Of a stretch of DNA of 64,000 bases, positions 20,118 to 23,312 are shown piece by piece (position 1 is the stretch's first letter; the number at the start of each line of letters is the position of its first letter). Under the pieces are notes generated by a model. The model worked only from the letters and a program-made list of their open reading frames with translations, did not search any database and was not told the origin of the DNA. Position numbers and translations under genes: made by a program. This stretch comes from Oscillospiraceae bacterium (GTDB lineage Bacteria > Bacillota > Clostridia > Oscillospirales > Ruminococcaceae), in assembly GCA_009784825.1 (NCBI GenBank), contig WQXO01000005.1, forward strand, positions 100,876 through 164,875. Direction: 5' to 3'.

Positions 20118-22049
20118 ATGGACAAATCAAACATTAAACCACAGGGCGATGTCGTTTTCGCCCTTGACATAGGCACTCGAACCGTTGTGGGGATTTTAGG
20201 TGAGCAGCGTGACGATGTTTTTGAAATGCTCGATTACATAGTCGAACCGCACCCGAAGCGTGCGATGATTGACGGGCAGATTGAGGACATTCGACAGGTT
20301 GCGAAAATCGTCAACAAAGTGAAAGACCAGCTCGCCGAACGTGTCGGAATTAAATTAGAGCGGGTTTCTATTGCGGCGGCAGGGCGTGCTTTAAGAACCA
20401 AGCGTGTTTCAATGAAGCACGATATTTCCAATGCGGAAACTATTACCTTTGACATGATTAAGTCAATGGAAATCGAAACCATTCAAAAAGCGGCAGAGGA
20501 AATCGCAAACGAGAGGGGTACGCATACGCCGTATTATTGTGTGGGACATTCGATAATCGGGTACTTATTAGACGATTATAAAATGATTACTCTTGAGGGG
20601 CATAAGGGCGAGGTTGCGACTATCGAATTGATTGCGACATTCCTGCCTAATGTAGTTGTCGAGGGGCTTTATTCGGTAATGGATATGTGCAATTTAAGCG
20701 TGTCGAGCCTGACGTTAGAGCCGATTGCCGCCATGAACGCCATTATTCCGCAGGAAATACGCTTGATTAATATCGCCCTTGTTGATATTGGTGCGGGAAC
20801 GTCGGATATTGCAATTTCTAAGGAGGGAAGTATCGTCGCTTATGCAATGGCGACTACGGCGGGGGACGAGATTACCGAGGAAATAATCAAGACCTATTTC
20901 GTGGATTTCGACACGGCTGAGAAAATAAAACAAGAATGCTGTGACTTTTCCGGTGAAGCCGGGCAAACGAGTACAGGTACTGTGTACAGGGATATATTCG
21001 GGATTGAGCGGAAAATCACCCCCGAGGAATTCGCCGAGAAAATTGAACCGAGCGTTGACGTTCTTGCCGAGACAATCTGTGTTAACGTAACCGAAGCCAA
21101 TTCGGGAAGCTCACCTGCGGCTGTGTTCCTTATAGGCGGGGGAAGCCTTGTTAAAGGGCTGTCGGAGGCTGTTTCGGAAAAGCTCGGTATTCCGCTTGAG
21201 CGTGTGGCGTTAGGCAGTTATAAGAGTCTCAAGCACATCGACACTAAGGGCGTTGTCATGGGAGCAGAATTCGTCACGCCTTTAGGCATAGCAGTTACCG
21301 GGGTAATAAATAAAGGGTATGACTTTTCGGTAATTACGCTTAATGATAAAAGCATTCGCATATTCGACACCAACAAGGTAACGGTGTTTGAATTATTAAC
21401 CGTGGCAGGGTTTAAGTCTGCAGAAATATTGGGGCGTTCGGGGCATAATCTCACATATACCATAAACGACGTTCGTAAGACCATACGAGGCGGCGGGTTT
21501 GAACCGGCAAGGCTGTTATTAGGCGGGAATCCCGTTTCACTGAGTGCGAATATTACCGGGGGGGACAAGGTCGAGTTTACGCCCGCAGTAAATGGCGAAA
21601 ATGCGAGAATCCTCTTAAAAGACGCTGTGTTACCGGGTGTTCAATCAATGCCGGATGAATTAGGCGTCAAGGTCAACGGGGAGGATAAACCGTGGGATTA
21701 TTCCGTTCAGAACCTTGATAAAATAGAAACCTATATTATTGAGGGGGAGGAACCGGAATTCCTTGAAAATGCAGAAGTCGCCGCAGTTGAAAGTGACACA
21801 GTTGTGCTTACACCGGAGGAAGAAAAAGCGGCAGGCGAGATTAATATAACCCTCAACGGTGTTGCCTTAACACTTCCCAAGAATAACGACGGAATGCCGC
21901 ATACTTTTTTGGAGCTGCTCAATTATTCCGAGTTGGATTTGGATAACCCTGAGGGAGGGTATATTATGACGGTCAACGGCGTCCCTGCGAGTTTTAACGA
22001 TGTTTTAGCGGACGGTGACCAAGCAGTGTTAAAGTGGGATACGGAATAG
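20118..22049 (+). CDS. FtsA/PilM-like actin-fold ATPase with long C-terminal extension
   Basis: VFALDIGTRTVVGILGEQ; VSIAAAGRALRTKRV; INIALVDIGAGTSDIAISKEGSIVAYA. Confidence 0.85.
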   Translation: MDKSNIKPQGDVVFALDIGTRTVVGILGEQRDDVFEMLDYIVEPHPKRAMIDGQIEDIRQVAKIVNKVKDQLAERVGIKLERVSIAAAGRALRTKRVSMKHDISNAETITFDMIKSMEIETIQKAAEEIANERGTHTPYYCVGHSIIGYLLDDYKMITLEGHKGEVATIELIATFLPNVVVEGLYSVMDMCNLSVSSLTLEPIAAMNAIIPQEIRLINIALVDIGAGTSDIAISKEGSIVAYAMATTAGDEITEEIIKTYFVDFDTAEKIKQECCDFSGEAGQTSTGTVYRDIFGIERKITPEEFAEKIEPSVDVLAETICVNVTEANSGSSPAAVFLIGGGSLVKGLSEAVSEKLGIPLERVALGSYKSLKHIDTKGVVMGAEFVTPLGIAVTGVINKGYDFSVITLNDKSIRIFDTNKVTVFELLTVAGFKSAEILGRSGHNLTYTINDVRKTIRGGGFEPARLLLGGNPVSLSANITGGDKVEFTPAVNGENARILLKDAVLPGVQSMPDELGVKVNGEDKPWDYSVQNLDKIETYIIEGEEPEFLENAEVAAVESDTVVLTPEEEKAAGEINITLNGVALTLPKNNDGMPHTFLELLNYSELDLDNPEGGYIMTVNGVPASFNDVLADGDQAVLKWDTE

Positions 22050-22050
22050 A
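21983..22050 (+). repeat. Direct repeat A: 3' end of ftsA-like gene
   Basis: cctgcgagttttaacgatgttttagcggacggtgaccaagcagtgttaaagtgggata..gaataga; repeated at 23246-23312. Confidence 0.95.
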
Positions 22051-22068
22051 TAATAGTGGGTGGGTGTT

Positions 22069-22848
22069 ATGAAAAAGCTCATTGTTCTGATAATAACAGC
22101 GGCGATTTTGTTTACGGCTTGCGGTAATTCTGATGTTCTCGATGTTTCAGAAGAATTATCAATAACAGATGAGCCGATAATAGCGACTGCAACAACCGCC
22201 ACAACAACAGTAACTACCATTAAACCCGCATTGCCCGCAACCGAGCCGTCGGAAGAAACATCATGGGAAGAATATTATTCGGAGCAAGGAATAACATGGG
22301 TTTCCAATGACGATGGCGTTGACTGCGATAAATTTGACTTTACATATATATCATTAAGCGGGGATTTAGAGGAACATTATGATATTCCTACGGAATATGC
22401 AGATAAACTAAAAGAGCTGGGGATATTCAATCGGCAAGGTACGAATGTATTTCCCTTGGGTGAATATTTTGTTGTTTCGTCATATGGCGAAACTGACGAT
22501 GATTGGTTCCCCGGGAATACGAGTTATCCGTTATACTGGTATGTCTTCAGTGAAAACCATTTTACCGCTTTTGATATAGTTCCGCATTGTGTAAACAACG
22601 GGTCGGTATTTATCGCAAATGATATATTATATATATATGATACATCCTTTACCGCCGGATTTCAAAGGATAGGTTTTTGGGAGTATTCAATTGCAACAGG
22701 GGAGCGGATTAATGAATATTGGCGGCATTATCAGCTTGCACAAGGCGGCGGTTTAATTATATATGAAGAAAACTCGACCATGCCGATTATGAATTCAAGA
22801 GAATTGGAGGAGTATATGCTCGGAATTTCCGATGTATGGTATAGTTAA
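22069..22848 (+). CDS. Putative lipoprotein of unknown function
   Basis: MKKLIVLIITAAILFTACGNSD lipobox; lies between the two ftsA 3' repeats. Confidence 0.75.
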   Translation: MKKLIVLIITAAILFTACGNSDVLDVSEELSITDEPIIATATTATTTVTTIKPALPATEPSEETSWEEYYSEQGITWVSNDDGVDCDKFDFTYISLSGDLEEHYDIPTEYADKLKELGIFNRQGTNVFPLGEYFVVSSYGETDDDWFPGNTSYPLYWYVFSENHFTAFDIVPHCVNNGSVFIANDILYIYDTSFTAGFQRIGFWEYSIATGERINEYWRHYQLAQGGGLIIYEENSTMPIMNSRELEEYMLGISDVWYS

Positions 22849-22883
22849 GAGGTAAGATATAACAAGGGAACAATAAAAAGTGC

Positions 22884-22912
22884 TTGACATAAGAGAGAAT
22901 GTATGGTAATAT
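22884..22912 (+). promoter_or_regulatory. Promoter of candidate antisense antitoxin RNA
   Basis: TTGACA (22884) - 17 nt - TAATAT (22907). Confidence 0.8.
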
Positions 22913-22919
22913 GATAAAA

Positions 22920-23008
22920 AAGAGGCAGACCAAGTGACGGTCGCCCTCCCTTAGACAATGGTCATAAATAACCGCTTGCTTTGGTTGGCTGGGCGGTTAT
23001 TTTCGTTT
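22920..23008 (+). ncRNA. Candidate type I antitoxin RNA, antisense to toxin mRNA 3' region
   Basis: Begins ~8 nt after the -10; ends in AAATAACCGC...GCGGTTATTT hairpin plus T-rich tract; overlaps toxin stop and 3'UTR. Confidence 0.7.
22966..23008 (+). terminator. Terminator of antitoxin RNA
   Basis: AAATAACCGC (22966-22975) pairs with GCGGTTATTT (22993-23002), followed by TCGTTTTA. Confidence 0.75.
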
Positions 23009-23092
23009 TATTGAGTCTATCATGGACTTAAGTAGCTGTGCATTTTCACACACAACATACAGTATAATCAGAAGAGTATCCAATATTTCCAA
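22997..23092 (-). CDS. Candidate type I toxin, 31-aa hydrophobic/basic peptide, TTG start
   Basis: (M)EILDTLLIILYVVCENAQLLKSMIDSIKRK*; SD AAGGAGG 9 nt upstream; consensus promoter further upstream; not in the ORF track. Confidence 0.75.
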   Translation of the reverse strand: MEILDTLLIILYVVCENAQLLKSMIDSIKRK

Positions 23093-23170
23093 TAGACATC
23101 ACCTCCTTTTACAAGGAGGACGACCGCCACCGTATAAGTCTGCCCCGGGCACATCCGTGCCGTATTTGCC

Positions 23171-23200
23171 ATTGTAGCATAAAATGACAGATTATGTCAA
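23171..23200 (-). promoter_or_regulatory. Promoter of candidate type I toxin mRNA
   Basis: Minus strand TTGACA - 18 nt - TACAAT. Confidence 0.78.
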
Positions 23201-23212
23201 GCGATTAACAAT

Positions 23213-23238
23213 AAAAAGGGGCAAACTACCCCTTTTTT
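23213..23238. terminator. Terminator
   Basis: AAAAAGGGG-CAAACTA-CCCCTTTTTT. Confidence 0.85.
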
Positions 23239-23245
23239 CTATATG

Positions 23246-23312
23246 CCTGCGAGTTTTAACGATGTTTTAGCGGACGGTGACCAAGCAGTGTTAAAGTGGG
23301 ATAATGAATAGA
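23246..23312 (+). pseudogene. Orphan copy of the last ~21 codons of the ftsA-like gene (direct repeat B)
   Basis: Encodes PASFNDVLADGDQAVLKWDNE*; nearly identical to 21983-22050. Confidence 0.95.

What the first reader, a model, noticed from the sequence alone, without database searches (positions are those of the whole stretch)
21983..23312. 3' end of ftsA-like gene duplicated around a lipoprotein plus TA insert
About 67 bp at the end of the ftsA-like gene (21983-22050) recur almost perfectly at 23246-23312, encoding an orphan PASFNDVLADGDQAVLKWDNE*. Copy 2 is directly followed by a strong bidirectional terminator (23318-23350), as expected for the ancestral gene end. The ~1.2 kb between copies holds a lipoprotein gene, a candidate type I TA locus and its own terminator. 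This looks like an insertion that regenerated the host gene's 3' end, with no recombinase visible.
Basis: partly seen in the sequence, partly recalled or inferred. Interest (0 to 1): 0.8.

Follow-up and report, generated by a model that had tools for sequence, protein, structure and literature searches.

The report
Toxin-antitoxin insert duplicating gene's end
A small piece of DNA carrying a unique lipoprotein gene and a toxin-antitoxin-like cassette sits between two copies of the last 67 bases of a gene, and the same footprint (a duplicated gene end around a small cargo, mostly toxin-antitoxin genes) recurs at about a dozen other places in this uncultured bacterium's genome, pointing to a way such gene pairs enter chromosomes without a recombinase of their own.

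Summary
The last 66 bp of the FtsA/PilM-like gene plus 1 bp (21984-22050) recur at 23246-23312 (65/67 identical, sharp edges). They flank 1195 bp that hold an ORFan lipoprotein gene and a dispersed type I TA-like cassette. A strong bidirectional terminator follows copy 2.

It is not a one-off. In about 845 kb of the same genome, plus TA-family hits genome-wide, about a dozen other genes or terminators have their 3' end duplicated (23-65 bp) around a small cargo. The cargo is usually a TA module: Phd-ParE at gyrA and ecfA2, MazEF twice, MNT-HEPN/HepT three times, a PIN pair; also a DUF559 nuclease, DUF4299 and lipoprotein-like genes. A congener has MNT-HEPN between 76-bp repeats. Relatives show empty sites for ecfA2 and dgt; at the FtsA-like gene the closest relatives have one tail and no lipoprotein, but their downstream genes differ.

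Repeat lengths vary and neither repeats nor cargo ends share a motif, which argues against a site-specific integrase or a fixed-TSD transposase. Best reading: insertion with long, variable target duplication, a footprint described for restriction-modification systems, here mainly with TA modules. How the duplication arises (staggered break with fill-in, or template switching) is inferred.

The parts
20118..22049 (+). host gene: FtsA/PilM-like actin-fold protein, 643 aa (conserved next to dgt-dnaG-rpoD in relatives)
   Evidence: below the FtsA equivalog cut-off
21984..22050 (+). target duplication copy 1 (gene 3' end incl. stop codon +1 bp)
22051..23245 (+). inserted segment, 1195 bp
   Evidence: lies between the two copies; lipoprotein not found in relatives
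22069..22848 (+). lipoprotein gene (259 aa), ORFan
   Evidence: lipobox ...FTACG; no Pfam family; no homologue among 5.8 billion proteins
22884..22912 (+). promoter-like site of the putative antisense RNA
22966..23001 (.). shared hairpin where the two convergent RNAs would overlap and end
   Evidence: fold -17.6 kcal/mol
22997..23092 (-). toxin-like 31-aa hydrophobic peptide (start codon TTG) MEILDTLLIILYVVCENAQLLKSMIDSIKRK with strong Shine-Dalgarno
   Evidence: peptide and RBS kept in dispersed copies
23171..23200 (-). promoter-like site of the toxin RNA
23213..23237 (.). terminator hairpin at the right end of the insert
23246..23312 (+). target duplication copy 2 (orphan gene tail; presumed original position)
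23318..23349 (.). bidirectional terminator after copy 2 (presumed original terminator of the host gene)
12100..12146 (+). second case: dgt 3' end, copy 1
   Evidence: D13; 83% identity
12152..13009 (+). second case: inserted DUF4299 (PF14132) gene
12989..13035 (+). second case: dgt 3' end, copy 2
   Evidence: D13
24488..24522 (-). third case (weaker): near the 3' end of the DUF2339 gene (24457-27012, -), copy 1
23882..24460 (-). third case: gene between the copies (192 aa)
23831..23864 (-). third case: copy 2 (24-nt core 23841-23864, 96%)

Best explanation
The 1195-bp segment (lipoprotein gene plus type I TA-like cassette) was inserted into the 3' end of the FtsA-like gene with a 67-bp duplication of the target, so the host gene kept an intact 3' end and the original tail and terminator were pushed downstream. 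Shown: the repeat, the insert, the lineage-specific cargo, and the same footprint at many other loci, with empty sites in relatives at two of them. Inferred: the duplication comes from a staggered double-strand break (about 25-75 nt apart) that captured a foreign or ectopic fragment and was filled in, or from replication template switching. Insertions at gene 3' ends and terminators are the ones that survive because the duplication leaves the gene whole. TA cargo is over-represented probably because TA pairs resist later loss.
For: Repeat and insert. Lipoprotein absent elsewhere; single tails in the closest relatives. Recurrence in the genome: gyrA 3' end (23 bp incl. stop) around Phd-ParE; ecfA2 (45 bp, 96%) around Phd-ParE; aspS terminator (47 bp) around MazEF; another terminator (32 bp, 100%) around MazEF; terminator (34 bp, 100%) around HEPN-MNT; beta-propeller lipoprotein 3' end (36 bp, 86%) around MNT-HEPN; lipoprotein 3' end (42 bp) around MNT-HepT; PIN pair; rimO 3' UTR (60-65 bp, 94%) around DUF559; leuS 3' end around two small lipoprotein-like genes. 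Congener G065: 76-bp repeat incl. stop around MNT-HEPN. TA identities by Pfam. Empty sites: in relatives ecfA2 runs straight into the next gene; in G000 the orphan copy 2 keeps the ancestral-type tail ..RAKERILEWIKKE* overlapping the next gene's start, while copy 1 now ends ..RANERILDIMMNT*. dgt is followed by dnaG after 21 bp in L057. ParE/HEPN/PemK loci in G000: 6 of 18 have such flanking repeats, against 25 of 494 small ORFs overall, about half of those 25 being TA genes themselves; with roughly 12 of 480 non-TA ORFs, Fisher P about 1e-5.
Against: No strict empty site at the FtsA-like locus. The enrichment test partly reuses the discovery cases; leaving them out gives 2 of 14 against 12 of 480, P = 0.056, and the non-TA count was judged by eye. 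The other G000 copies of the type I cassette have no flanking long repeats, so the cassette has also spread some other way. In 20 complete HEPN loci of other genus genomes only one clear case was found. Mechanism unproven; no reads to exclude misassembly.
Confidence: 0.75

Rival explanations
1. A small integrative element moved in trans by a tyrosine recombinase, with the 67 bp acting as attL/attR at a gene 3' end, as many islands do.
For: 3' end restored by the duplication, sharp edges, no recombinase needed in cis.
Against: Repeats at eleven loci share no motif and vary from 26 to 67 bp; cargo ends share no motif. Cargos of unrelated TA families would each need their own recombinase.
Confidence: 0.1
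2. Homology-assisted uptake: donor DNA from a relative carrying the gene tail next to the cargo integrated by a single crossover, giving a repeat as long as the shared homology.
For: Also makes direct repeats of variable length at gene 3' ends, and some pairs are only 80-87% identical.
Against: No relative was seen with tail plus cargo as donor; two terminator repeats are 100% identical; repeats of 23-36 bp are short for homologous recombination (my knowledge).
Confidence: 0.12
3. Assembly chimera: two strain variants joined at the 67-bp sequence.
For: The genome is a draft of 32 contigs, probably metagenome-assembled; a 67-bp repeat is within reach of a short-read misjoin.
Against: Copies differ at two bases with unique flanks; a dozen similar structures in this genome and one in G065.
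Confidence: 0.04

Closest known systems
Insertion with long target duplication of restriction-modification systems (Nobusato et al. 2000; Furuta et al. 2010; reviewed in PMC3874152, PMC3031569)
   Same: Selfish gene pair inserted without a recombinase, flanked by long, variable-length direct target repeats, with empty sites in relatives.
   Different: Cargo here is TA modules, a DUF559 nuclease and lipoprotein genes, not RM; repeats 23-76 bp, described as on the order of 100 bp for RM; targets are almost all gene 3' ends and terminators; many events in one genome.
Genomic islands/IMEs integrating at gene 3' ends by tyrosine recombinase
   Same: Duplicated gene 3' end flanks the insert and keeps the gene intact.
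   Different: No integrase, tiny cargo, no common att sequence, variable repeat length.
Type I TA loci with convergent, 3'-overlapping RNAs (txpA/ratA, bsrG/SR4 type; from my own knowledge)
   Same: Small hydrophobic peptide with strong RBS, convergent promoters, shared terminator region, several copies per genome.
   Different: No Rfam, Pfam or NCBIfam match; the RNA 5' ends are inverted repeats of each other; toxicity untested.

Membership tests
Insertion with long target duplication | long, variable direct repeats of host sequence flanking the cargo | tested here: met
   67 bp here, 23-76 bp elsewhere
Insertion with long target duplication | empty site with one copy in a relative | tested here: inconclusive
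   Supported for ecfA2 and dgt; at the FtsA-like locus relatives have a single tail but different downstream genes
Insertion with long target duplication | no recombinase or transposase in the insert | tested here: met
   only a lipoprotein gene and a small TA-like cassette
Insertion with long target duplication | cargo is a restriction-modification system (as originally described) | tested here: not met
   lipoprotein plus TA-like cassette; TA modules at most sister loci
Integrase-dependent island at a gene 3' end | shared attachment sequence between sites | tested here: not met
   no similarity among repeats beyond shuffles, P = 0.53
DDE transposon | fixed-length target duplication and terminal inverted repeats | tested here: not met
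   lengths vary; left ends against reverse-complemented right ends no better than shuffles, P = 0.34
Type I toxin-antitoxin | small hydrophobic peptide conserved with its RBS | tested here: met
   one G000 copy (L005) reads only a truncated peptide, and codon position 3 is not strongly favoured among changes (142/72/151)
Type I toxin-antitoxin | antisense RNA overlapping the toxin mRNA | tested here: inconclusive
   convergent promoter-like sites and shared hairpin only predicted
Type I toxin-antitoxin | toxicity neutralised by the antisense RNA | not testable with these tools
   needs an experiment

The most novel reading that the evidence does not exclude
TA modules of several unrelated families move into chromosomes by one shared, recombinase-independent route that leaves variable 25-75-bp target duplications, so that chromosomal TA modules in this lineage are in effect mobile elements with a common insertion mechanism.
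Probability: 0.4. Interest if true: 0.8.

Novelty: new variant of a known kind. Interest (0 to 1): 0.62.

Why it matters
How stand-alone TA modules enter chromosomes without a transposase or integrase is an open question. A genome with about a dozen insertions still flanked by recognisable target duplications gives footprints of different ages, shows that the target gene survives because its 3' end is duplicated, and makes the insertion mechanism testable across strains. It extends a footprint reported for restriction-modification systems to TA modules.

Tried and rejected
Rfam scan of the region: only sub-threshold chance hits. Plasmid search for the TA-like cassette: none; one viral contig carries it. 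Tandem paralogues with similar 3' ends (C5:113888, C2:55021, C6:74845) were set aside as gene duplications. Dispersed palindromic or promoter-type repeats (C3:10189, C3:46224, L271, L276), tRNA paralogues (C1:19974) and AAT-rich spacers between ribosomal genes were not counted. C2:211358, C4:635, C6:71679 and C3:91096 were left uncounted as ambiguous. The TA-like pair DUF4160/DUF2442 (named by eye) between rpoD and the FtsA-like gene has no flanking repeat. The 2010 paper on mobile RM forms is not held.

Full report
The repeat is real. The 67-bp segment 21984-22050 recurs at 23246-23312 with two differences and sharp edges on both sides. Copy 1 is the end of a 643-aa FtsA/PilM-like gene (PilM_2, FtsA and MreB_Mbl domains, below the FtsA equivalog cut-off). 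Copy 2 has no start codon and is followed at once by a bidirectional terminator (23318-23349, -17.7 kcal/mol).

Between the copies lie 1195 bp. The lipoprotein (259 aa) has no Pfam family, no real relative in 70 other genomes of the genus (only weak signal-peptide or low-complexity matches) and no homologue in a 5.8-billion-protein search. The cassette at about 22884-23200 has convergent promoter-like sites, a shared hairpin and a 31-aa hydrophobic peptide on the minus strand. It is a dispersed family with other copies at 68-82% identity on at least four contigs of the same genome, in other genomes of the genus and in one viral contig among tail and baseplate-like genes (gene types judged by eye). 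Its peptide matches no Pfam or NCBIfam model. The other copies inspected in this genome have no long flanking repeats (the one strong match, L006, is a pair of paralogous neighbour genes), so the cassette alone does not explain the duplication.

Relatives. In the closest relatives the FtsA-like gene ends once and no lipoprotein follows directly; more distant ones have an unrelated lipoprotein there that looks like a GH26-type enzyme (identified by eye). Downstream genes are not shared, so the strict empty-site test fails for lack of material. It can be made at sister loci.

The same footprint elsewhere. Two more cases are in the window: dgt (12100-12146 and 12989-13035 around a DUF4299 gene) and, weaker, DUF2339 (24-nt core). 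About 845 kb of the genome was taken in stretches and searched for close direct repeats, and the candidates were read one by one. After removing paralogues and dispersed repeats, the cargo is strikingly uniform: MazEF, Phd-ParE, three MNT-HEPN/HepT pairs, a PIN pair and a DUF559 nuclease (Pfam), besides small lipoprotein-like genes after leuS. Genome-wide searches for four families added gyrA, whose last 23 bp including the stop codon are duplicated around Phd-ParE, and the aspS terminator, duplicated around MazEF (gyrA, aspS and the Phd and MazE partners at these two loci were named by eye). In another species of the genus, 76 bp at the end of a gene are duplicated around MNT-HEPN (L279).

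Controls. Of 18 ParE/HEPN/PemK loci 6 have such repeats within 450 bp, against 25 of 494 small ORFs, about half of which are TA genes. Counting about 12 of 480 non-TA ORFs gives P about 1e-5; without the discovery cases it is 2 of 14, P = 0.056. The mirror test (5' ends duplicated upstream) gave mainly paralogues and repeats. Repeats share no motif (P = 0.53), nor do cargo left ends (0.37), right ends (0.60) or inverted termini (0.34).

Empty sites. In relatives ecfA2 runs directly into the next gene, often overlapping it. In this genome the orphan second copy still reads ..NDIYTVERAKERILEWIKKE* and overlaps the start of a small membrane-protein gene, as in several of those relatives, while the working copy now ends in sequence supplied by the cargo. 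dgt is followed by dnaG after 21 bp in L057.

Interpretation. Variable repeat length and absence of motifs argue against a site-specific integrase and a fixed-duplication transposase. What is left is insertion with long target duplication, described for restriction-modification systems (PMC3874152, PMC3031569; the 2010 original was not available here). The molecular step (staggered break with fill-in, or template switching) is inference. The bias to gene 3' ends and terminators is what survival would produce, since a duplication across the stop codon leaves the gene whole. In the papers searched I found no statement of this footprint for TA modules, but the search was limited.

Noticed in passing
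L233 (G000 C13, about 25.7 kb): Last 23 bp of a gyrA-like gene including the stop codon duplicated around a Phd-ParE pair.
   Followed up: yes
L160 (G000 C2:82312-83055): ecfA2 3' end duplicated around Phd-ParE; the working gene now has a new C-terminus.
   Followed up: yes
L248 (G000 C8, about 91.4 kb): Terminator after an aspS-like gene duplicated around MazEF, with stem changes that keep the hairpin paired in both copies.
   Followed up: partly
L279 (G065 C7): 76-bp duplicated gene end around MNT-HEPN in another species of the genus.
   Followed up: yes
window 19588-20099: DUF4160/DUF2442-like pair (possible TA; named by eye) between rpoD and the FtsA-like gene; its first gene was not found in the relatives' loci.
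   Followed up: partly
L253 (IMG/VR contig), 2737: Type I TA-like cassette lying among phage tail/baseplate-like genes.
   Followed up: partly
L047 (G014): Tandem array of at least four small hydrophobic-peptide cassettes with the same RNA layout.
   Followed up: no
L012-L034: In many relatives the FtsA-like gene is followed by a lipoprotein gene that looks like a GH26-type enzyme (by eye).
   Followed up: no
L143 (G000 C5:25786-35275): AAT-rich repeats occupy several spacers between ribosomal protein genes.
   Followed up: no
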